From the NCBI GenBank assembly GCA_025093555.1, contig JAIWNF010000092.1, positions 1-64,000 on the forward strand: a DNA stretch of 64,000 nt. The letters are read 5' to 3'. The notes beneath the pieces are model-generated. The model was not told the DNA's origin. It did no database searches and saw only the letters and a program-made list of their open reading frames with translations. Origin of the DNA: Circinella umbellata. Taxonomy: Eukaryota > Mucoromycota > Mucoromycetes > Mucorales > Lichtheimiaceae. Below, piece after piece: positions 5,651-54,400 of the stretch. Numbering within the stretch: position 1 is the first letter of the stretch; each line of letters starts with the position of its first letter. The translations under genes were made by a program, and so were the position numbers.

Positions 5651-8600
5651 ACTGGACATAAAGTATTTTTTTAACCAGCTCAAACTCGGCTCAAACCGCA
5701 TGTTTGAGCTTGTTTGAGCTGGCTAAGTTATTAGGTTTGAGAATTTTTGAGAACCATGATGAGCGTATCCGATCTGCTCAAACGCGCTCAAATCAATGGT
5801 TTGCCCTGCTCAAACTGGTTTGTTTTTTTTATTCTAAGCAGATTGAGCACTCTCGATCTATGAGTTTGAGCCTTTGAGAAAAAAGATGAGAGGTTCAAAA
5901 TGATATTAGTCTTCTACCCTATTGGCTACTGCTTCATGTTACACCTTTTGATCAAAGTATCATATTGGTGGGTTCTTTTTACATGAAGTATATACAGCCT
6001 TCAGTATTGGCTCCTTTATTTCGGACATTTTAAAACTATCATTTGGTATTGGCTTATTATTCTTTAAGTTGATCAATCATCTGCTTTTTATTTCCTTTTA
6101 TATACATAAAGAAGTCTTTTTTATTTATTTATTTTTTATCTACTATACTAAAATAAATATATAATTTTTACTATACTAAAAGCTAAACTATTTTATCTAA
6201 ATTTGATATTACTAGCCTTCATTTACCATATAACAGATCTAAAAAAGTCTAATATAAAATGCCTTTTAATAAATATAACTATAAATATGTGATGTAAAAT
6301 TGTAAATAAATAACGCAAAATGAATCATATTAAAAAAAGCATGAAATGAAACCATACCATCCTATAGAAAAAAGAAGTTGAGTATATGAAAATGTTTATG
6401 CAATAATATTAAAGAGGAATTAGTTATGCCATAAGTAATATGTTTACCGAATAAATTACAGAAAAGGTTAGTTATATTATAAAAACATGTTCACGGAATA
6501 ATATAAAGAAAAAGATGAGTTAGGCTATATATAAAATACTTACGGAATAATTTTGAGAAAGAGATAAATAACATGTTTCTATGGAAACCGCTACTATAAA
6601 AGAACACATTATATTCATTAGACATCAATAAAACCATACGATAAATATATAAAAAGAACAAGTACATACCTGCCAAATACTCAAGCTTAGGGAAGTTGTC
6701 TACTATATGATGTAAAGCACCTATTCATGTCAGCTTCAATTTTTTTATACCATTTATGATTCATCTATTACTAGTTTTTCACTATTTACCCTGGCTTTTA
6801 GCAAACACGTTTTTCATGATACAGTCAATAGTTGGCATGGGTGTACCTTAAGAAACTATTCTATGAATCACTGGATATGATTGATGAGTAAGAATATCCA
6901 AGTTGATGTAAAAGGGTCATGTAGGCAAGTAAAAAAAAGAGATACTGGTACCTGTGTCAAAGTACGAAACGCGCGTATAGCTTTGTTTCAAGCAAAAGTA
7001 GATATAGTAAATGGGAATAGACAAAATAAAAAAAATGGCAGATAAAAAAGCAGATATGTTAGGGCTTGTGAACCATTACTGAAGGGAACACACGGAGATA
7101 GGGCACACAGGTACACACAAAAAAAAGAAAAAAAAGAGTAGTTACTACCTGCAGTAAGCATAAAACATATAGATATCATCAAGTAAGCAAGAGTATAAGA
7201 GCCGGATAAAAACAAGGATGTGGTTAATGAATAAAAAGATTAAAGAATAAATTCAGGGCAAAATATAGGGATCTTAGTACAATCCGGATTTATAAACCGA
7301 TCCGTTTTTCATACGGATTGGATCGGATTTGGATTGTGTCTCAACGGATTCAGATCGGATTCGGATCGTAATTCTACAATCCGGATTGTAAACGGATTGA
7401 CATCTATGGATCCGTCGGATTTTTCTGATCCGTCATTATAATTATAGAGTAATGGATCAAAGTTTAACAATGCTGTGGTAAGGTATATATATATATTCAA
7501 ATAAAGAAGAGAGTAAGTTTTTGTATACTATTATATACTTGAATAGAGCAGTTGAAAAGAAAAGTAGTAATGGCTTTAATATAGAAAAAAAAATATCTGA
7601 AACGAAAGAAACAAAAATTGAAGATTAAAAAGAGAGATTAATGAACTTAATTACTATTTTTATTAATCTAGTAATGATAAAGAGAATTATGAACTTTTAT
7701 TTAGTTGTAAACAGAAAAGGTAAACTTATACCTCTTTTTTTTCAGCACACCGGAAATTTACTACTTGCCCCCTCAAAAAAAAAATCCACGTCATGTTATA
7801 TTTCTACCACAAAAACTTATTTGTACTGCACCACCATAACTTTTTTTTTTCTACTATAACTTTCCCACTATAATTTTTTTCCAACTATAACTTTCTTTTC
7901 CCATTGTAACTTCTTTTTTCCCATTATAACTTTTTTTTCTACTAGAACCCATTTTCCCACTATAACTTTTTATTACTACAATTATTTTTTTATTATATAA
8001 CTTATTTATTTCCTATTATGTTTTTCAAACCAAAATAATAAAGTCATCTAAAAATAATGCACCTCTGTTACCAATGTTTTACTGTTCTTAAACGATCTCA
8101 AACGACTACCATACACCATCTTGTAAAATACCTTTTCTCATGAAAAAATACTGTGACATCTACTATATAGCCTAAATTTTTATCTAATTGATCCTTTTGC
8201 ATTACGGATTACGGATTCAATCCGGATTTTTACGAAACGGATTCGGATTGCAATTTTCTAATCCATGGACAATCCGAATTTCCGAAAATCCGATCCGTTT
8301 CAAAACGGATCGGATTCGAAATGGTGCCAATCCGATCCGGATCGGTCTACTATAAACCCTAGCAAAATATGAGTAAAAGAGTACGCGTAATCTGGCCAAA
8401 AAAAGAACATTACAACTACCGGTGTTAAACATAAGAACCAACATATAAACTCCATTACCGTACAAGAGCATCTATGTATAAGATTAAAAAAATGTGAATC
8501 AGTGCTGGTATGATAGTTAAAGATGATAATGATAGATTATTTTAAAGATGGGGTGAAATTTATGTTGTGTCATTTTGTTGTAGTAAGGGGAGTAGAGTAG

Positions 8601-10516: not shown

Positions 10517-13500
10517 ATGTCTTCCCCCAATCAACAAAGCCAATCATCAAACTCCCGATCTGATGCCCAATCTACCACCCGTCGTCAAGCAAAAGAAGAT
10601 CATGAGAAATATGTTGAGAAATTGATTAATGATCATATTCCTCATTTTCCAGACTTATATAAAAAGAAAAAAGGTAACATCAAGAAGCGAAAATTACAAG
10701 AAAGCAGCTCTACTGGTAAAGATAAAACCTCTTCGGAATTCGTTGGAAACAATGGTCATATTTCAGAAAGAGTGTTTGAAAATCAAGGAAAAGGTCTATT
10801 GAGAAATACAAGAGTCTCATGGATATAATACATCTACATCTTATTGTGCTAAGCAAGTCAAATTCCTTATTTTCTGTAATCAGCATTATGCCCACCGTCC
10901 TCTTGCAACGCGTCATCAAGCTACCGGTAACAAACTTCTTTCATTTCTTTATCAGAAGGTAGTATATAAAATATACTGTTGGGGTCCGAAAAAGAAGTAT
11001 ATCTATACCTTTACTAACTATTATTTTTATAATATATATATATATATATATATAGGTAGTTAATCGTCAGCTTTGTAAGCCTGGTACAAAACACATTGAA
11101 GAATCAAACATTGATAATAACGAGGGACTCGATGAAGAAACCATCAAAACCGATGCCATTCAAAAAAAATTATTCTACAGTACCTGTAATGTTTACATAT
11201 CTGTAATTGTCGACCTTTGGAATTATCAACGGCTCATGTGTTTCAACAGCACCGAATCTCCACGTACAAAGGTCATTACTAAACTCCTCAAAGTAGTTCG
11301 AATGCGAGAAGCAAATAACAATTAGGAGAATAATGTTGATCGCGCCACAACTTCCATTTCAAATGGCTATACAACAAAACTCCTAGTAGCAGCTATAACT
11401 AAACACCTCTACAACAACCCTGAACAATTTTATAAGTTCAGTTTTCGAAATGCAATTGCCTTTTTGATGTTGCATTATCTATTGCTTCGAGGGGAATCCA
11501 TGTAAAATATCGAGTTTGCCGATTTACAGCTCCAAGAGGTACCAAAAGTAGGAGCTGAGGGCACTTATCCGATTATGATAATGATTTTTAATCAAGGAAA
11601 AACCACAAGTTTAATAAGACCTAGACAGGCGCTTGTATGCACAACAAAATGGTTGAAATATGTCCATTTATGGCGTTGAGCTTCCATTTCTTTTGGAGAT
11701 GGCATTGCCAAAAAGAGACTTTTCCCAATATGGAAAATAATGGAAACTGGTTCCAGCTTAAGGTGCTCCACGGTGCAAGACCTCAGTCGAGATCATCAGA
11801 GAAGAAAGGAAAGGGGCCAGAAAGAACAGGTAAGTTTTCAAATTTTGATGTCTTTAATAGCGATAGGATGAATAGATACTAACCATATAGTTTCCATTTA
11901 TTTTCTTAGGAGCTGACAGTGTGGTTGTTGGTAATGATGATGATGAGGAATCAAGTGACGATGAAATTTATAAAGCCAGAAATCAAAATCCGTTGGAAAC
12001 AGCCATTTCGAAAGGAACCTATACCCGGTTTATGAAGATTGCTCTGAATTCTGCCGGCTAGGGTTCTTAGTAGACCGATCCGAATCGGATTGGCACCATT
12101 TCGAATCCGATCTGTTTTGAAATGGATTGGATTTTCGGAAATCCGGATTGTCCACGGATTAGAAAATTGCAATCCGAATCCGTTTCGTAAAAATCTGGAT
12201 TGAATCCGTAATCCGTAATGCAAAAGAATCAATTAGATGAAAATTTAGGCTATATAGTAGATATCACAGTATTTTTTCATGAGAAAAGGTATTTCACAAG
12301 ATGGTGCATGGTAGTCGTTTGAGATCGTTTAAGAACAGTAAAACATTATAGTTGAAAAAAAATTATAGTGGGAAAGTTATTGTAGGAAAAAAAAAGTTAT
12401 GGTGGTACAGTACAAATAAGTTTTTGTGGTAGAAATATAACATGATGTGGACTTTTTTTTTTGTGGGGGCAAGTAGTAAATTTCTGGCGTGCTGAAAAAA
12501 AAAATAGGTATAAGTTTACCTTTTCTGTTTACAACCAAATAAAAGTTCATAATTCTCTTTATCATTACTAGATTAATAAAAATAGTAATTAAGTTCATTA
12601 ATCTCTCTTTTTAATCTTCAATTTTTGTTTCTTTCTTTTCAGATATTTTTTTTTCTATATTAAAGCCATTACTACTGAGAAACGATCTAACACTTATTTT
12701 TAATTCTTTTTTTTTGTATTTCGAATCTTCTGCAATACCCAAGGTTGTCAGATTCGATAATTTTTTTCTTTAAAAATTAAATAAAAAGCACGTAGTAAGT
12801 TAAAACTTACAACTTTATTCTGGAACATTAATTATATTATATTATTTGAATATAACAAAATATTTGAAGATAAGAAAAAATTTAAATAACAAGATAATAA
12901 AATAATATATTAGATTAATTATAAATAGAAACGTTTCTCACTTTTCTGTTCAACTGCTCTATTTAAGTATATAATAATATACAAAAACTTACTCTCTTCT
13001 TTATTTGAATATATATATACCTTACCACAGCATTGTTAAAACTTTGATCCATTACTCTATAATTATAATGACGGATCAGAAAAATCCGACAGATCCATAG
13101 ATCTCAATCCGTTTACAATCCGGATTGTGGAATTACGATCCGAATCCGTTGAGACACAATCCAAATCCGATCCAATCCGTATGAAAAACGGATCGGTTTA
13201 TAAATCCGGATTGTACTAAGATCCCTACTGCCGGCATATTTGTAACAAGAAAAGTAACTCATGTTCTAAGGTCTTCTGCTGCAAAAATGGTTGACTTGGC
13301 TGGTGTACCTGAATCGCAAATACAAAGAATGGGGCAGTGAAACACTGATACAATGACGAACTCATATCTCGACTCTCTTCCTCGCCAGTTCATGAGAGTG
13401 ATGGCTGGTTTTGAGAATGATGTGATCTACCACCTTATAGGGGGCATAGAAGAACTATGTTCTAATTTAAAAAGAATGGTATTTCCTTGGGTGGATTACT

Positions 13501-43124: not shown

Positions 43125-44994
43125 GGAGCTTTTTCTACATGCTCCCATTTATCTTTGTTCTCTCCCATCCAATGTAACGATCTTTCTTTTACACCTCCAG
43201 AATACCATTTAGGTTTCGGATTTTTGCTCTAATATTCAACCATTTTTAAAGCTTCATACACCTGCAACATGTGAAGCTCCATGTACGCTTTAACTCCTTC
43301 TATAACTCGTTTTCGACGATTATATTTCTGGCTCTGGTTTTTTCGCCATACCGTTCCTCATTGGTTTTCAAGATCCTTAATAGCAGGACCACCAGATAAG
43401 CCATCATGCCATTTGCGCCATAAATCTTGTGTTGTGCATACACCTGAACTCAGTATATAATGCGGTGACTGCTGGGATGGCGTGGTAATGGTAGAAGGTG
43501 TAGTAACTAGTTGATGTGGATGTTGAGGTAAATTTACAGAAGGTGTAAGTGTTGAAATGTTGATGGGTGACGGGGTGGCATAGATGACGATAATGGGGTA
43601 GCAGAAACAGAACTGTCGTTTAGAGCAGCAGACGAGTTTGGTGCCCACTGAACTGAAATTATAAGACGCCCATTTGCAAGGTCTCCCATAGCCTGGTTAA
43701 AAACGTTTACATGTTGTTGAAGCAGCTGATTATTGTGGTTTACTTGCTGCATAACATCGGCATGTGTTTGGCGAATATAGTTGTGTAAATGTGGCATGGC
43801 GCTTGATAGCAAAAGGTCCTCTGGTGGTGGGGTGATGGCAATTGATTGTTTAAGGTCATTAGAATAAAAAAGAATGGTAAGTTAGAATTAAGTATTACAA
43901 GTTATTTATATATCATACAATAGAAATACAAGACTTACGATTTATATGCCAAGTATTCTAGGTCATTAAAAAGGGGGGCACTACAGATAGAAAGACGTGG
44001 ATGGCGTTTTATCATCATGACAGAATCTTACAAGAATGTCACTTTAAGTATTTGTAACATTTTTAAGAATCCATCAGCAGCAACACTTTGATCACCTTGG
44101 CCTTGATCGATCTTTGTTTGCCACTCTTCAACCCATGGAAAGACTTTTCTTTACAAACTACTATGAGGTGAAACGGAGGCTCGAGGTAAATAAAATGTTT
44201 TTCCATTAGCATCAAAAGACGCCATCGCTCGTAACATTCGCCAAGGCAAATTTGTAAGATATGAGCCTTCCATTGAATCGTTCGTCCACCTTCCAGCCCG
44301 TCGAATATCTGAAGCACCAGCATCACCCAAATCTGCCATCTTGGCGCCTGATTTTCGACCTGCATGTGTGATTGATAGGGTTCTTAGTAGACCGATCCGG
44401 ATCGGATTGGCACCATTTCGAATCCGATCCGTTTCAAAACGGATCGGATTTTCAGAAATCCGGATTGTCCACGGATTAGAAAATTGCAATCCGAATCCGT
44501 TTCGTGAAAATCCGGATTGAATCCGTAATCCATAATGCAAAAGAATCAATTAGATGAAAGTCTAGGGAGTGCAGTTTTTTTTTTGGTGCAATTTCAGGTT
44601 TTTTGGTGCATCGCCACATTTTTTTTTGGTGCATCGCCACAAAAATATTAAACCTCAGACTCCGCTTGTATATTTGTACTATAAAAATAATTTAAGGGTT
44701 TTTTTTTTGGTGTTTTTTTTGGTGTTTTTTATTTTTGGGCATTTTTCATGTAAAAATGCATGAACTTTTTTATTTTTGTTATTTCGCGTAGAAAATGTAA
44801 CAACTTTTTAATATAGTATTACCTAACACACTATGTCCTAACTATAGACAAGCTTATCCATATCTGCATATATGCCTACTTTCACGATACAAAAAATAAC
44901 CATACTAACCATTTTTCGTAGGCTGTTTACCACTTATAAATCAGTATTGGGATTAATAGAATAATTATTACTGATGGAAAAATAATTTATATAC

Positions 44995-45636
44995 TTAGAA
45001 GTATTGACATCTAGCTTCGTATAAGTCTAACCATGATCTGGTGATATTATAATGGGAAATGATGGATTCATATCCAGGGAAAAGCTTTGGCCATATGACC
45101 CTATCTACAGCATCATTTTTGATTACAATGAGTTGAATATGGTTGCCTCTTAAGTAAAGTACAATAGGCGTGATGTCAATGATACAGTTACTGGAGTCTT
45201 TTTCAGGTTCTCTGAATGGCAAAAATGTGGTTCCATGAAACCCATATGGATGACATGAGTAGACAATAACCGGACGGTTATATGCCTGCGCTAAGACTTG
45301 AGGGCAGTCTAACACATCAAACCAATACTCTCTGAGAACATGACCGTCCGGTTGAGAAAGTTTGGCCAACACATATTGGTAGTGTTCTTCCCTACCAAAT
45401 AAAGGTGTGAAGAAGTCTTTTTCTTTTTCTAAAGTATGCTTCATAGTCGATTTAACAATGCCGTAATGTTCCTCAGCATCATTGACAACAACGGAGGCAG
45501 ATCTCCAACCACAGTTACCATCACTTTCAGGGTTATAAAAACCCAAAACGTCATCATCATTCAATCGGCATTGGCTAAGAATATCAGCAGATATGCGAGA
45601 AAGTCCCAAATACTTAAACATTCTATCATTATGCAT
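44995..45636 (-). CDS. OTU-like cysteine protease domain (likely fused to MULE transposase)
   Basis: 213 residues, intact. NPESDGNCGWRSASVVVND contains the OTU catalytic block D-G-N-C followed by an aromatic/Arg-Ser stretch (usual consensus DGNC.(F/W)R). A helical region follows (YQYVLAKLSQPDGHVLREYW), then LAQAYNRPVIVYSCH and a late NHIQLIVIKND segment where the catalytic His of OTU proteases normally lies. OTU enzymes remove ubiquitin; here the role is unknown. A donor GTGCGATA near 45718 and an acceptor CCAATAG near 45642 would join the preceding Lys-rich exon of the transposase to this frame without a stop; the stronger-looking GTAAGT donor near 45687 would not. So fusion is likely but unproven; a separate start at Met 45636 is the alternative. 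Confidence 0.75.
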   Translation of the reverse strand: MHNDRMFKYLGLSRISADILSQCRLNDDDVLGFYNPESDGNCGWRSASVVVNDAEEHYGIVKSTMKHTLEKEKDFFTPLFGREEHYQYVLAKLSQPDGHVLREYWFDVLDCPQVLAQAYNRPVIVYSCHPYGFHGTTFLPFREPEKDSSNCIIDITPIVLYLRGNHIQLIVIKNDAVDRVIWPKLFPGYESIISHYNITRSWLDLYEARCQYF

Positions 45637-45675
45637 AGACCTATTGGATATAATTTATATTGGTTAATAACATTA

Positions 45676-48273
45676 AATTAAATACTTACTGTGTTATCTA
45701 TATTCATCTTATCGCACCTGTCAGAATTGCCGTCATCAATCTTCCGTTTTTTGGAAGCTTGTTCTGATGCATTCTGCTTGCTCCTCTTCTTGTTCTCTTT
45801 GATACGCTCAGCGTGTTTCGCAGCGCGTTCATGTCGTTCTTCAGCCGCACTCTTCTTTTCTTTCTTCTTTCTTTCTTCTTTCTTCTTTTCTTCGTCTCTC
45901 TTTTCTTTCTTCTTCTTTTCTTCATCCTTCTTTCTTTCTTCTTCCTTCTTTCTTTCTTCTTCCTTCTTTCTTTCTTCTCTCTTTTTCTCAAATCCTATCA
46001 TGACACAATTGTCCCGTTAATAAAAGCAATCAAATATTTACAATTTCAGTCCTCAAACCACAACAGTAATGCATAAATATAGCGTATAAATGTTACCAAG
46101 ATCAAACAGAGTCATGGTCGTGTCTGGTGCACGACCATCATTCACGAACTTCTTGGTTTCATGGGGTTTGCTGTAAAAAATATAATTGTTATACATATAT
46201 ACACACACATAAAAGTAACATCCATACGAGACTATATAAAAGATAACATGTATATATTTATCTTCAACTCAATAAACTAGTACCTCGTTTTCTTTCTTCT
46301 ATAATCAGCTCTGCCACCGTTCTTAATATGATCAAAATCCAATTGAATGGAATTAAGATAGACAAATATCTGATACATAGTATCAATTACAGGTTTCTTC
46401 GATTCAACAATACGATATAGATCACGATGAAATGCTTCTATACCGTTTGTTGTACGAGTAGGATGTGCCTGTAATTCATCCTTAAGCCATTGTTTAGATC
46501 TAAAAATCATTCCAGCAATTTCTTCACGAACCCACCAATTGAGCCACTTTTTAGCATTGGGAAAATCATCCCGGATTTGCTGAACAGCCCGGTCATATGC
46601 ATTTGATCCAAGAGAATTATACATGATGTCAGTGAGATCAATGAAATCGACATCATACCCTGGTGGCACAACTGCATGGTTGCTGACAATTCTCTGTACG
46701 GATTGTTTCCAGTGATGATAACATCCTTTTAACAGGCTTTCAGGCAAAATGTTGCTGGTAGGGAATGCTTCTTGAAAAGCCGTGAGAAAGCCTTGTCTCT
46801 GGGCTTGCGAAAAATCCATAACCTAGCATGATTTAATACATCAGCATCACACACTCATTTACTTATCACATATATCGACAAACAACACACACATAATTAA
46901 CAATTAACAATATCAAGTACATAGATAAAGGTACATCCATTTATTTGCAATATAATATTCTAACTGATAAATATATACTCCTATTTATAATGTCTCCCCC
47001 ATCAATGCAGTGTATGTATAAAATACATCTGTCCAACTGGTAATGACACTCGCATATATTACAAGTCGTGCATTATAGATATACTATTTATGTTCCTCCC
47101 ATTTTTCCCATCAAAAAACTCAAACACAATCCTATAACATACCAACCATAAACACAAACTTACCAATCCAGAAAAATTCATATCAATTACTTCATCTGCG
47201 TGTCCAAAAACAAAATCAAAAGTCTTGAAAAAAGAGAGAAAGTAGTTTTTGAAATGCATTGTCGACAATCCATCCAACACGCCTTGAAAAATAACACCAA
47301 ACTTGTCAATTTCTTCAAAATATATATTTGTCGTACAAAGGTAATATCCCTTCGTAAAACAATCATAAGTGACATCAGTAAGCATTGGATGCTTCTTGAA
47401 GTCTGCTTTCATAGCAATATCTGGCGCACAGAAAGTAATACACATTTTCCCAGGAGTAATATCAGCAGATTGCAGATAACCTGGGAATTCGTTGGTCAGA
47501 TCTGCAAGTTCCATATGAGCAGATTCTAACACAGCTTTGGACGATCGTAACTTGTCATTCTTGGCGAGGTATGTACGTTGAAACCGCTTGATCGTACCAA
47601 GGTTGCGAAGATTTGGATCGATATCACTAATAGGCCTCGCTGGTTTTTGAACACGTACTGGGCTTGTGCCAACTTTCAAACCGTATGGCTTTTCAACTGG
47701 AAATTCCAAAACGCGCTCCTCTACCTTTTCCAAAGTTTCCATTGTGAAATGAAGTGGGATAAATTTGCCGTGTGTGTGCGTCCCTTCATGGTTCATTACA
47801 CCTATTAAAAATCAAACAATTAGATTGTTATATACATTATTAACATACCATTATTTATACTAATCATCCCACACAGTCTAACAATAATCAATCCCAGCTA
47901 ATAGCCTCTTTAATCTATAAAAAACAGAGTAAATTCCATAACCCATCTGAAAGTCTATGTTACCGGTCTTGCTTTTAATGTGAAAATGCACTTTTGCATG
48001 ACATTCAACATAAATTAAAGAGGGCTTGAAGCAACCAGGGCAATTTTCCGTAACCTGCACATCAATCCGTTCCTTGGATGACTTTGGTCTTAGCCAAACA
48101 TTGCAACTCGTACACTGCACGGCGCCCAAACATTTCTTGTAGTAAGTGGTGTACAGATTTCTTTTATCACGACTTACATGTTCCAATTGCCATCCAATGA
48201 ACATGTCATGACCTTTTTCGTCAAATGTAATTTCATGATTAACATGACCATCGGGAAATTGAGGAAAAGACAT
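45676..48273 (-). CDS. MULE transposase #2
   Basis: Minus strand, start Met 48273 (MSFPQFPDGHVNHEITF). Exon 1 holds a Cys/His region (QCTSCNVWLRPKSS, ENCPGCFKP, VECHAKVHFH) like the zinc ribbon ahead of fungal MULE cores. It splices (GT near 47962) to an exon starting VMNHEGTHTHGK near 47805. That exon contains HPMLTDVTYDCFTKGYYLC (first catalytic Asp) and IFQGVLDGLSTMHFKNYF. A donor after DMNFSGL (near 47162) joins to VMDFSQAQRQGFLTAFQEAF (second Asp block, 46822 down), followed by TNGIEAFHRDLYRIVESKKP (catalytic Glu). Further exons end TTMTLFDLG and a very Lys/Glu/Arg-rich coiled segment (45999-45790), then a basic NLS-like KKRSKQNASEQASKKRK. I see no internal stop if the introns are removed. 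It probably continues into the OTU-like frame at 45636. Confidence 0.85.
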
Positions 48274-48464
48274 ACTTAATAATTGAAGAAGATAAAAGTA
48301 GTAAAGTGAAGCAGAGCAACAATGATAATATATTCTGCTAGAATACTTGATACAAAAAGACTGCCTTTCCTTAATATGTGACCTCTTTTCTTGTATTAAT
48401 CAGTCGCGCTTTTAAATCATCTCTCCTGAAATTGCACCAAAAAAAAAACGCACCCAAGTCTAGG

Positions 48465-49314
48465 CTATATAGTAGATGTCACAGTATTTTTTCATGAGAG
48501 AGGGTGTTTTACAAGATTGTGTCTGGTAGTCGTTTGAGATCGTTTAAGAAAAGTAAAACATTGGTAACAAAGGTGCATTATTTTTAGATGATTTTATTAT
48601 TTTGGTTTGAAAAACATAATAGGAAATAAATAAGTTATAATAAAAAAAGAATTGTAGTAATAAAAAGTTATAATAATGGGAAAAAAGAAGTTACAATGGA
48701 AAAGAAAGTTATAGTTGAAAAAAATTATAGTGGGAAAGTTATAGAAGGAAAAAAAAGTTATAGTGATAAAAAAGTTTATAGTGAAAAAAAAATTATGGTG
48801 GTGGTAGAAATATAACATGACGTGGATTTTTTTTTGTGGGGGCGAGTAGTGTGCTGAAATAAAAAAGAGGTATAAGTTTACCTTTTCTGTTTACAACCAA
48901 ATAAAAGTTCATAATTCTTTTTATAATAATTAAGTTCATTAATCTCTCTTTTTAATCTTCAATGTTTGTTTTTTTCTTTTCAAATATTTTTTTTCTATAT
49001 TAAAGCCATTACTACTTTTCTTTTCAACGGCTCTATTCAAGTATATAATAGTATACAAAAACTTACTCTCTTCTTTATTTGAATATATATATATACCTTA
49101 CCACAGCATTGTTAAAACTTTGATCCATTACTCTATAATTATAATGACGGATCAGAAAAATCCGACGGATCCATAGATCTCAATCCGTTTACAATCCAGA
49201 TTGTAGAATTACGATCCGAATCCGATCCGAATCCGTTGAGACACAATCCGAATCCGATCCAATCCGTATGAAAAACGGATCGGTTTATAAATCCGGATTG
49301 TACTAAGATCCCTA
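48465..49314 (-). mobile_element. Main part of hAT copy E
   Basis: Continuation of copy E beyond the MULE: shares the CTATATAGTAGATGTCACAG start of the interior, the TTATAGTGGGAAAG-type repeats and the CGGAT-rich subterminal region with copies A-D. Confidence 0.9.
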
Positions 49315-50506
49315 GTGATTGATGTGGATTTAATATGGCAGTCATCAAATGCCTTCTTAAATGCTTTGTAATGAGCGTTATGAGAAACGGCCCTTTTCAA
49401 ATCATTGGTTGCACCGCTCTTGAATAGCTTGATTGTATACCATTCCTTAGGACGTGTCATATCTGGGAATTGCTCACTGCTAATATGCCAGCGATGGAAA
49501 AAATATATGCCAAGAGTCATCTAAAGACAAATTTCTACATGTCCACACTGAATAGCGGATGCATGTTCTTGTTTTCCAAATTGATTTGTCTTTCCATGAT
49601 CTATAAGTAAAATTAAGCATGGGCACTCGACTTCGAGATTTGGACCTTCTCCTTGCAATGGAATGTAATGTACATCAGCCAACTCGATCTCACGAACATT
49701 TCCACCACGCATTAAGCCAAGATGAGACGCCAAAAATATTACTGCATTTCGATAATGCTCAGGTCGGTCCTTGGTTAGAAAGTAGTCAACCACCTTTGTC
49801 AATTCGTCAGTAGTAGAATACCCATCGAGAATGGAACCAGCGACACGATCTGTGTAGTTTTCCTTTCTTCTTCTTGTTTCTTTTTTTCTTTCATTTTTCA
49901 ACAATGTCTTTACATCTGGGATTTGTGGATGGTTACTGGGGACATTGAGGTTGAGATGGCATTGATCATAGAGAAGTAGGACCACAGCACTGACATATTG
50001 TTCAATGGAGCTGAAACCGATTACATATGCCTCTACTTCTTCTTCAACTGTTGTACTATCGTCATCAATTATTCTTCTTTTTGGGTTTGTTGGACGACAT
50101 TTTCTTCTGATTACCTTTATGGATGAGAAGATATATAAGTAAAAAGAAATTACAATTTTATTTTTGTTTACTTTTTTAATGCCAGTATTACTTACAGATT
50201 CCTCAAAAAAAAATGCAATTTATCACCATCAACTTGATAGCAGGTAGCTAATGGATATCCTTTGTCATCACACCATCTGATGAATTCGTTCATCTTTGGA
50301 TAGTATGTACGTTTGGTAGCATCAGGTGCAACTTGTTGGGTTGTTCGTTAGGTTCGTCGTCTTGATTCTTGCATTGCTATGTTTAATTGATGTGCAGCAT
50401 GGCTAGATTGTCTATTGGAACTTCCAGATAGTTGAGATGATGAATCCTCACTAAGATGAGTATATATTTGACAAAGGTAAGGATGATATTTGGCATGGTC
50501 AGACAT

Positions 50507-51415: not shown

Positions 51416-54400
51416 TTATGAAATTGAAGGAGGAGGCGGAAGAGGTGATGGAGAGAATATTTCAGGATATACAACATTTTTTGTAATAGGGCGATCAGCT
51501 TGTCTATCCCATTCAGCCATTATATGCAAGTTTCTGTAATCGGTAACGCGTGAAAATGCGACATATAACTGACCATGCGAAAACACTGGATCAGGAAGAT
51601 AAACACCAACGTGTGTTAATGTTTGACCCTGCGACTTGTTTATACTAAGACAGAAAGCAGGTTTAAGTGGAAATTGTTTCCGAGATATTTCGCATGGTAA
51701 TCCAGAAGATTGTGAAGAGCTGATAAGCTTAACACGTGGTATATGGACGGGATTGCCAGTATGACTGCCAGTTATAATTTCGGCTTCTATGAGATGTGTA
51801 TGTAGGTTTCTGCAAATTAGTTTTGTTCCATTACAAAGACCCTCTGCTGGATTCAAGTTACGGAGAAGAATGACAGGTTGGTTGATTTTTAGACGAAGTC
51901 GATGAGGTGGGAATCCTATTAAGTTTAAACGAAAAAATAATATAATGATAAAGATATCTGAATAAATAATAAGTAATATATAATATAAATAGAACGCAGT
52001 AAATGAACATGTTAGTGTTGGCATGAATTCATAGGGAAGCTCAACAGAAATACTTGTTACCTGAAATAGACAATGTGTTTAAAAATTCAGCAGGGATTTG
52101 GTTGGCATATTCTTTGCCAGGGACGGTGTCTGTACTCAAATATTCATGGCATTCGCCTGGAAAACGATCAGTAGCGACATCATTAATGATATCTACTACA
52201 GCGTTTTTTGGTGATAATATTGCCCTTTGTGCAAAATATTGTGGGTCGGGTGTTGTATGGCTGTCTAAATTTGGGTAGATTACATCCAAAAGATTATTTA
52301 TATTTGAACCTCTTATGCACCGTTCGCGATCAAGAAAAATATAATCTGAGTTTGGACGAACTATAAAATGAAAATTAGTATTAAAAGCCATCCTCTTGGG
52401 TTTTATTTATATGTATTTTTTTGTTCAAAAGATAAAGTACCTGAAGCCATTTGACCGTCGCCGATTTGAAGTAAATCTCGCGCAAATTGTCGTTGACGTT
52501 CGGAATGTTCATTGTTATCGTCAAGGTTTTGTAATCGCATATTGATTGTTAAATGAAAAGTACAAATTGAATTCCATAAAGGCGAACGAACAAAACTTGC
52601 ATTGACACAGTCACTTCTACTTCCTCTTTTGACAACAGGAAGGGTTTGTCGAAAGTCACCACCAAAAACTATCACTTTGTTACCGAAAAGGGCGTTTTGT
52701 AGTGAAGGATCGGTAGCACCCATGATATCCTGAAGTGTACGATTTACAGCCTCAACAGCATGACGATGAATCATTGGCACTTCATCCCAAACAATTAAAG
52801 AAGCATCGCAAATGGCTTGCGCCCTTTCACTTTGCAAACTAATTGAACATGTAGATGAATCGTCTAAATTTTCAACAGGAATTTTAAATATTGAGTGTGC
52901 TGTTGCACCACGTCGAAGTAACAAAGCAGCAACACCAGTAGAAGCAACAGCAATTGCAGACTTGTTTTGAGAATGAACATGGGCAAGGAGAGTATTATAA
53001 AGGAATGTTTTACCACTCCCACCTTGACCATCCAAAAAGAAGGCCCATTGCTCGATAGTAGGATCATCGACAGCAGCTGTTACTACATCGAATACAGCAC
53101 GTTGATCAGCATTAAGGCTTCTAATAGAATCTTCTGCTACTTGGGCGAGATCTTCAGTGTTTTCAGCTTCTACCTGCTGTGGATGTTCAGGTATTTCATT
53201 TTCAAAAGAAGAAAGATCAGGTAGAGGAGGGAGTATTGGGAATTGTGAAAGAGAGCTATTTTGATCGAGAAGAAGATTATTAATATCAGTAATTGCCTGA
53301 GCATTACAGCGCGCAACATCAGGTTCCAAATCATTCACACGATATCGATGCTGATAGTCTTCCGAAAGATGGTCGCCATATTTTTGCCACAAAGCACCAG
53401 GGTTGGATGGGTTTGCGAATAAAAGTAAAGTAATAAAAAGACGGCGAAGTTGAGGGATGGATGTTACAACCGATATTGCTTCTGCAAGACAAAGATCATA
53501 TTCTTCATCACTTTCCAACAACAAGCGTGCTGCAGCCGCTTCTTGAAATAATTCATATTCACGACCATTGTAACGCAATAAATCATTATAACTTTGTGCG
53601 CCAGGAACATTATGTAGCAAAAGGCGTAAAGAGAATCGTTCCATATCACCAGGCGACACAAATACTACCCGACCAACAGCAGCTTTGGATCGAGTTCGTG
53701 GACTCCAATAATTATAGGTACCACTTGTATTCTAAGAATATTGTGATGGTATTTGATGATAGCATAATTCTCGTGCAGTGGGATCAGTGCTTAAAAAATA
53801 ATAAAGGTAATAGAAGGTGGTGGTGATTAGAAAGAAGTAAGAAAAACGTATATCTTAATAGAACAACAAAGAATTACATACTGATTTAATTCAAAGTATG
53901 CCTCCAGGGTCGAGAGTTTTTGTTCTGCACGCTCAATCACTTCTTGTACAGTTTGATTGGGGCGACAGTACACTTTTTTTTCCAGGTAAATGAATAGATA
54001 AAGATTGTACAAAGGGTGCTCTTGAATGCAATGAAAACTAAACAAACGCCAAAAAGACTCCAATGCGGATATATACCGAGCGTCTTGATATAAGGTTGTT
54101 TCATCAATATCATCTTCATCATCTTCATTATCAACAGTAGCAATAGCAGTAGCGGAACTATCATTATTCTGGCGACGACGCATAGACATTAATGCACGAT
54201 CATGTCCTTTAAATACATACTTATAGAGATACTTGACAGCACGGACATTATTACATATCTCAACATTTATATGAGAATCATACTTTGTTGTCAAATAAAG
54301 ATTGTGGGGCACCACCCAGGTATTATCGAGTGCAACTCTATTTCTACTTATTCGTACATCTACTGTTCTGCCATCATTACGTCGTCTATATATTGGATAA

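What the first reader, a model, noticed from the sequence alone, without database searches (positions are those of the whole stretch)
44995..48273. MULE transposase apparently fused to an OTU-like deubiquitinase domain
A full MULE transposase is followed, through a Lys/Glu-rich linker, by an intact OTU-like domain with D-G-N-C. Both lie inside one TSD-bounded element and no stop intervenes if a weak GT donor near 45718 is used. Transposon-encoded deubiquitinase activity in the same chain as the transposase would be unusual; it might stabilise the transposase or act on host chromatin.
Basis: partly seen in the sequence, partly recalled or inferred. Interest (0 to 1): 0.8.

Follow-up and report, generated by a model that had tools for sequence, protein, structure and literature searches.

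The report
Jumping gene with built-in deubiquitinase
In a mould genome, a mobile DNA element encodes its transposase (the enzyme that moves it) fused to an OTU domain, a type of enzyme that usually strips ubiquitin tags, and related elements carry a second, unrelated ubiquitin-stripping type of domain in the same place, which suggests that such elements gain from undoing the host's ubiquitin tagging.

Summary
Window 44567-48455 is a 3,889-bp Mutator-like element with a 9-bp target-site duplication and one six-exon minus-strand gene (48273-44995). Its spliced 827-aa product runs zinc finger, DDE transposase, Lys/Glu/Arg linker, OTU domain. The junction intron is conserved in place and phase; the donor is imperfect in the window's lineage but consensus-like in two sister lineages. 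A sister family has eight about 99%-identical copies, seven with target-site duplications. Gene models of Circinella minor and Mucor plumbeus also fuse the parts. An AlphaFold2 model (pLDDT 91) matches OTU deubiquitinases; Cys and His are invariant, the usual third catalytic residue is not.

Beyond the finding: in this genome (inferred Circinella umbellata) OTU domains follow two transposase groups, and a USP-like domain takes the same place in both. 51 of 93 OTU places and 20 of 24 USP-like places have a transposase within 4.5 kb upstream on the same strand; none has one downstream.

Best reading: MULEs here repeatedly gained or exchanged C-terminal deubiquitinase modules. Ginger1 transposons and ULP1-bearing MULEs are close precedents, so it is a new variant of a known kind. 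Splicing, enzyme activity and role are inferred, not shown.

The parts
44567..48455 (-). whole Mutator-like element, 3,889 bp
   Evidence: TIRs and TSD
44558..44566 (.). target-site duplication AAGTCTAGG, left copy
48456..48464 (.). target-site duplication AAGTCTAGG, right copy
44567..44598 (.). left terminal inverted repeat
48425..48455 (.). right terminal inverted repeat
47964..48273 (-). exon 1: start codon and Cys/His zinc-finger N-terminus
   Evidence: gene model; same exon in family B; GCM-type assignment only through relatives P0008 (30.4 bits, cut-off 25) and P0012 (16.6, below)
47164..47801 (-). exon 2: transposase, first catalytic Asp D246 at 47374-47376
   Evidence: 84 places in genome
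46284..46822 (-). exon 3: transposase, D319 (46814-46816), CxxH with C350 (46721-46723), E445 (46436-46438)
46097..46170 (-). exon 4: transposase C-terminal part
45718..45994 (-). exon 5: Lys/Glu/Arg-rich linker
45641..45717 (-). junction intron, phase 2, 77 nt, donor GTGCGA
44995..45640 (-). exon 6: OTU domain and stop codon; Cys656 codon 45511-45513, His780 codon 45139-45141

Best explanation
This is a Mutator-like element whose only recognised gene encodes a transposase with a C-terminal OTU-fold domain in the same chain. Shown here at sequence level: one spliced frame, TIRs and TSD, conserved junction intron, OTU fold (predicted), conserved Cys and His, and repetition of the layout at many loci and in several species' gene models. 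Inferred: the OTU removes ubiquitin. Tethered to the transposase by a charged linker, it acts where the transposase sits, most likely by removing ubiquitin chains from the transposase or from proteins at the transposition site (chromatin, repair factors), and so keeps the complex from being degraded or restricted. A role in ubiquitin removal is preferred over chance capture because a second, unrelated deubiquitinase-type domain (USP-like) takes the same C-terminal place, and both types occur with two transposase groups.
Against: No transcript or enzyme data. The window lineage's donor is GTGCGA (GCGCGA in L032), and a downstream GTAAGT could yield a transposase without OTU. His+2 is not Asn/Asp in 10 of 10 rows. 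Some gene models lack part or all of the OTU: P0005 has none, P0003 and P0009 stop before the His, P0002 has no clear His box. 42 of 93 OTU places have no transposase found upstream, and 42 of 79 G-type and 12 of 46 F-type transposase places have neither module. dN/dS against decayed copies is higher: OTU 0.46 (L032) and 0.82 (L042). The nearest copy, L031, has a stop inside its OTU.
Confidence: 0.72

Rival explanations
1. The OTU is a separate gene inside the element, made from its own start codon (for example the ATG at 45636) rather than as part of the transposase chain.
For: The OTU exon opens with an ATG six codons into its frame; lineage A has a strong-looking alternative donor that would leave the OTU out of frame.
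Against: Only 77 nt lie between the linker exon and the OTU exon; the intron's phase 2 is kept in lineages A, B and C; gene models in C. minor join them; four USP-bearing relatives have single uninterrupted frames.
Confidence: 0.1
2. The OTU domain is a passenger: a captured host fragment, or an OTU-fold domain that has lost protease activity and only binds ubiquitin or serves structure.
For: His+2 is never Asn/Asp in 10 rows; MULEs are known to capture host fragments (Pack-MULEs, passages of PMC6431247).
Against: Kept open in 8 near-identical copies and at about 50% identity between families A and B; Cys and His invariant; the fold is nearest VCPIP1 and OTUD5, and in A20-type OTUs the third residue lies elsewhere (recalled); replaced by a USP-like domain in relatives.
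Confidence: 0.13
3. The protease processes the element's own protein (self-cleavage between transposase and C-terminus), as viral polyprotein proteases do, rather than acting on ubiquitin.
For: It sits at the C-terminus behind a long linker.
Against: No known cleavage site was sought or seen; OTU and USP families are ubiquitin-type proteases (recalled), and two such classes share the place.
Confidence: 0.05

Closest known systems
Ginger1 DNA transposons (Bao, Kapitonov and Jurka 2010, PMC2836005; passages seen)
   Same: DDE transposase with a C-terminal OTU, or in other members Ulp1, in one chain: the same architecture and the same exchange of protease class.
   Different: Gypsy-integrase-type transposase in animals, not a Mutator-type transposase in fungi; the second protease there is Ulp1, here USP-like.
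ULP1-bearing Mutator elements (Hoen 2006, van Leeuwen 2007, as cited in PMC2836005; originals not seen)
   Same: Mutator-type element carrying a ubiquitin/SUMO-type cysteine protease domain.
   Different: ULP1 (C48 family) against OTU here; known from plants, hydra and lancelet according to that passage.
Helitrons/Helentrons with OTU and VTD domains (PMC9741609, passages; PMC6431247, passages)
   Same: Transposon protein with a deubiquitinase-type domain; the authors suggest protection of transposition proteins from degradation.
   Different: Rolling-circle RepHel protein. VTD activity was measured there; that paper says transposon OTU domains had not been tested.
VCPIP1, OTUD5/DUBA and A20-type OTU deubiquitinases
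   Different: Low identity; no Asn/Asp at His+2, which OTUD5 has (HYN in the alignment).

Membership tests
Mutator superfamily (MULE) | 8-11-bp TSD (range recalled) with terminal inverted repeats | tested here: met
   9-bp TSD and 31-32-bp TIRs in the window; TSDs in 7 of 8 family B copies
Mutator superfamily (MULE) | DDE triad with a CxxH motif between second Asp and Glu (motif recalled) | tested here: met
   D246, D319, C350-Y-H-H353, E445, by motif only
Mutator superfamily (MULE) | match to a Mutator/MULE profile | tested here: inconclusive
   window protein none; relative L051 Transposase_mut 17.5 bits, cut-off 21 and IS256 15.6 bits; P0010 ZSWIM1-3_RNaseH-like 14.8 bits, cut-off 27.2; profile comparison with L053 not significant
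OTU cysteine protease | OTU fold | tested here: met
   pLDDT 91.2 model; the 50 PDB entries shown by VIA-align and the 50 rows shown by Foldseek read as OTU proteins by title; 11 of 11 PDB profile hits at E 0.01 or better are OTU-bearing chains
OTU cysteine protease | D-G-x-C box and catalytic His | tested here: met
   Cys and His invariant, aligned with OTUD5 Cys and His columns
OTU cysteine protease | third catalytic residue (often Asn/Asp at His+2; elsewhere in some OTUs, recalled) | tested here: inconclusive
   His+2 is Q,Q,Y,Y,L,L,S,I,I,E in the 10 rows; another position was not tested
OTU cysteine protease | deubiquitinating activity | not testable with these tools
   needs a bench assay
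Ginger1 | Gypsy-type integrase core | tested here: inconclusive
   Pfam shows no integrase hit for the window protein, but Pfam also misses its own transposase type; the 9-bp TSD differs from Ginger1 (4 bp, recalled). Not filed as Ginger1.
ULP1-bearing MULEs | C-terminal ULP1/C48 peptidase | tested here: not met
   domain is OTU by profile and fold; no C48 hit
Pack-MULE gene capture | non-autonomous element with gene fragments in place of a transposase | tested here: not met
   the transposase frame is complete with D, D, E

The most novel reading that the evidence does not exclude
In Mucorales the C-terminal end of MULE transposases is an exchangeable deubiquitinase slot: two transposase groups have each carried two unrelated deubiquitinase types (OTU and USP-like), and OTU modules have moved between the groups (the OTU of L051, behind a window-type transposase, groups with the OTU of L053, behind a PF10551 transposase, at 99/96 support, with the tool's long-branch warnings). 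This would point to ubiquitin-dependent restriction of these elements by the host and a counter-measure that the transposase carries in cis.
Probability: 0.5. Interest if true: 0.78.

Novelty: new variant of a known kind. Interest (0 to 1): 0.64.

Why it matters
Why several transposon groups carry ubiquitin or SUMO proteases is an open question (raised in PMC2836005 and PMC9741609, passages). Here the protease domain is predicted in the same chain as a DDE transposase, a family of about 99%-identical copies with target-site duplications exists, and relatives with either an OTU or a USP-like module lie in the same mould genome. That makes direct tests possible: does killing the protease change transposase level or transposition, and can one module replace the other?

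Tried and rejected
Separate-gene, passenger and self-processing readings were considered and ranked below the main one for the reasons given under rivals.

Insensitive searches: Pfam and NCBIfam do not name the window OTU or transposase. The Pfam OTU model finds 2 places in the genome, neither among the transposase-linked ones. Comparing window-type transposases with L053 by profile gave nothing significant.

USP-like class: rests on Pfam UCH for L056 (28.3 bits, over the cut-off 23.9); L057 (20.3) and L055 (17.4) are below it, L058 and L059 have no UCH hit and were named by eye from Cys and, in L059, His boxes. P0010 likewise by eye. The PDB profile search gave nothing under E 0.3, with USP6 at 0.68; a single-sequence search gave nothing relevant. 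The structure prediction from 3 sequences failed (pLDDT 39.6) and was not used.

Dropped: the dN/dS row exon3 WIN-L032 (1.10), taken as a frame misalignment; window to family B dS is saturated. Family B copy L041 was not modelled (donor string differs).

Paper searches showed no description of a MULE with OTU or USP domain in the listings or the passages read. Muszewska 2017 on fungal cut-and-paste transposons is not held, Repbase cannot be searched here, and only open-licence papers are held, so an earlier mention is possible.

Full report
1. What is there. The window holds a 3,889-bp element at 44567-48455 with 31-32-bp terminal inverted repeats and a perfect 9-bp target-site duplication, AAGTCTAGG. 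By motif and phase I built a six-exon minus-strand gene: 48273-47964, 47801-47164, 46822-46284, 46170-46097, 45994-45718, 45640-44995 with the stop; introns 162, 341, 113, 102 and 77 nt; phases 1, 0, 2, 1, 2; 827 aa without a stop. The product has a Cys/His-rich N-terminus, a DDE core (D246, D319, C350xxH353, E445), a 93-aa linker that is 69% K, E and R, and an OTU domain with SDGNC and GNH.

2. Is the junction real? The linker-to-OTU intron sits at the same place and in phase 2 in three lineages: window type AG|GTGCGA (window, L031, L033; AG|GCGCGA in L032), family B AG|GTGAGA, lineage C (L043, L044) AG|GTGAGT. Against a tiny matrix of 10 element donors, which includes the B and C junction donors, the window donor scores 7.76 (training range 4.96-9.51) and a competing ACA|GTAAGT 28 nt downstream 4.35; this is indicative only. 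The competitor would end the protein before the OTU, so alternative splicing in lineage A remains possible. Circinella minor models P0004 and P0026 read NSDR-SMHN at the junction and P0014, the family B counterpart, NFAR-EMHN. The C. umbellata model P0022 also joins linker and OTU, at a slightly different residue. These are models, not transcripts.

3. Not a one-off. The window OTU finds 48 places in its own genome. Family B has eight copies; seven are 98.9-99.7% identical to L036 over the main aligned piece. Seven of the eight have target-site duplications, six exact 9-bp and one 8-bp; L041 has none. Seven of seven modelled copies give a stop-free fusion of about 860-880 aa; L041 was not modelled. 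The first protein search gave 13 proteins; five (P0001, P0002, P0003, P0009, P0012) are called OTU domain-containing by a source, from Circinella minor, Phascolomyces articulosus and Mucor plumbeus, and P0001 matches 100% of the query at 47% identity. Reading them: P0001, P0012 and the partial P0004 hold both Cys and His boxes; P0003 and P0009 end before the His, P0002 has no clear His box, and P0005 has no OTU at all. P0006, P0007 and P0011 were not read; P0008 was only scanned with Pfam and P0013 only aligned and scanned. A search with the OTU part of the full protein gave 2 proteins, and one with a 10-row OTU alignment gave 13. The host is inferred to be Circinella umbellata, since proteins of that species lie on contigs of exactly the lengths of C79 and C193 (taxonomy).

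5. Selection. Window against L031: OTU 11 differences, 7 at third positions, dN/dS 0.14; exon 2 0.19, exon 3 0.08. L043 against L044: OTU 0.30. Against decayed copies: L032 OTU 0.46 and exon 2 0.45; L042 (family B side) OTU 0.82, exon 2 0.32, exon 3 0.57. Numbers are small. Window to family B, codon-aligned identity: OTU 49%, transposase core 70%, N-terminus 51%, linker 56%. This fits selection on the OTU in recent history but does not prove it.

6. The wider pattern. Relatives of the window transposase (group G) and a classical MULE group (group F; L053, on the window's contig but outside the window, PF10551 72.7 bits) were searched in the genome, together with three OTU types and a second C-terminal domain found in L052. 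That domain is USP-like: L056 passes the Pfam UCH cut-off, others do not. At four loci (C158, C133, C190, C147) transposase and USP-like hits are listed with the same open-frame length (935, 909, 856, 840 aa), that is, one uninterrupted frame (read in full for L052). After merging the hits of seven searches: 93 OTU places, 24 USP-like, 79 G and 46 F transposase places. 25 OTU places have a G and 26 an F transposase upstream on the same strand within 4.5 kb, 42 have neither; 13 USP-like places have G, 7 F, 4 neither. Controls within 4.5 kb: 0 OTU and 0 USP-like places have a transposase downstream on the same strand; 3 and 0 have one on the other strand. Seen from the transposases, 24 G have an OTU, 13 a USP-like domain, 42 neither; 26 F have an OTU, 8 a USP-like domain, 12 neither. 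Hit lists are lower bounds, and at least one place counted as neither (C17) shows a USP-like Cys box when read (L058); the rest were not read.

7. Tree. In an OTU tree of 16 rows the OTU of L051 (group G) falls with that of L053 (group F) at 99/96, and group F OTUs form one clade in 0% of 200 bootstrap trees. This suggests exchange between groups, but the tool warns of long branches, and no transposase tree was built to compare.

8. Interpretation. A deubiquitinase-type domain behind the transposase, of two unrelated classes and with two transposase groups, is best explained by a benefit from removing ubiquitin (or a relative of it) at the transposase or its target site. Protection of the transposase, action on chromatin and action on repair factors cannot be told apart here. 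The first idea follows the suggestion made for Helitron VTDs (PMC9741609), the last that made for Ginger1 (PMC2836005).

9. Known context. Ginger1 transposases carry C-terminal OTU or Ulp1, and Mutator elements of hydra, lancelet and plants carry Ulp1 (PMC2836005, passages). Helitrons carry OTU and VTD domains; VTD activity was measured (PMC9741609, passages), and OTU also occurs in certain fungal Helentrons (PMC6431247, passages). The MULE survey PMC6446971 shows no occurrence of protease or Ulp1 in its main text, the arthropod MULE survey PMC13359780 none of OTU or protease, the fungal co-option screen PMC10799480 none of OTU, the study of TET/JBP-bearing fungal transposons PMC12730594 none of OTU, Ulp1 or ubiquitin. 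So the kind is known; MULE plus OTU, and OTU/USP-like alternation, appeared in none of the searches listed under Tried and rejected.

Noticed in passing
44376-49314, TSD GTGATTGA at 44368-44375 and 49315-49322: The MULE sits inside a hAT-like non-coding element (TIR TAGGGTTCTTAGTA, 8-bp TSD, read by eye). A second full copy lies at 12059-13227 with TSD CTGCCGGC. Family B copy L034 is flanked by similar hAT-like sequence.
   Followed up: partly
44066-44383 and 49524-50219, minus strand: The hAT-like element itself splits what looks by eye like a tyrosine-recombinase (Crypton-like) gene, giving three layers of nesting; Pfam shows only a weak NDC10_II hit (12.4 bits, cut-off 26.3).
   Followed up: partly
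51419-52078, minus strand: Pif1-type helicase fragment (Pif1_2B_dom 53.6 bits), probably from a Helitron.
   Followed up: partly
L053:1031-4328 (contig C203, outside the window): A classical PF10551 MULE with its own downstream K-rich linker and OTU, about 40 kb from the window's element.
   Followed up: yes
L052:20-2824 (minus), L055:550-1599 (minus), L056:55-1203, L059:333-1100: USP-like Cys/His-box domains at the C-terminus of MULE transposases of both groups.
   Followed up: partly
L036 and L041, exon 1: A shared 33-nt in-frame deletion in the zinc-finger region against six other family B copies.
   Followed up: no
L036 about 7189-7531: Family B elements carry a variable array of roughly 53-bp direct repeats before their right end (seen in the alignments; no tandem-repeat program was run).
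   Followed up: no
P0013 (Tilletia walkeri): A basidiomycete relative of the window-type transposase with no OTU or UCH hit in Pfam, so the transposase group may be wider than the protease association.
   Followed up: partly
L031, L033, window 45689: Window-lineage copies share a second possible donor, ACA|GTAAGT, that would give an OTU-less product; L031 has a deletion in that intron.
   Followed up: partly
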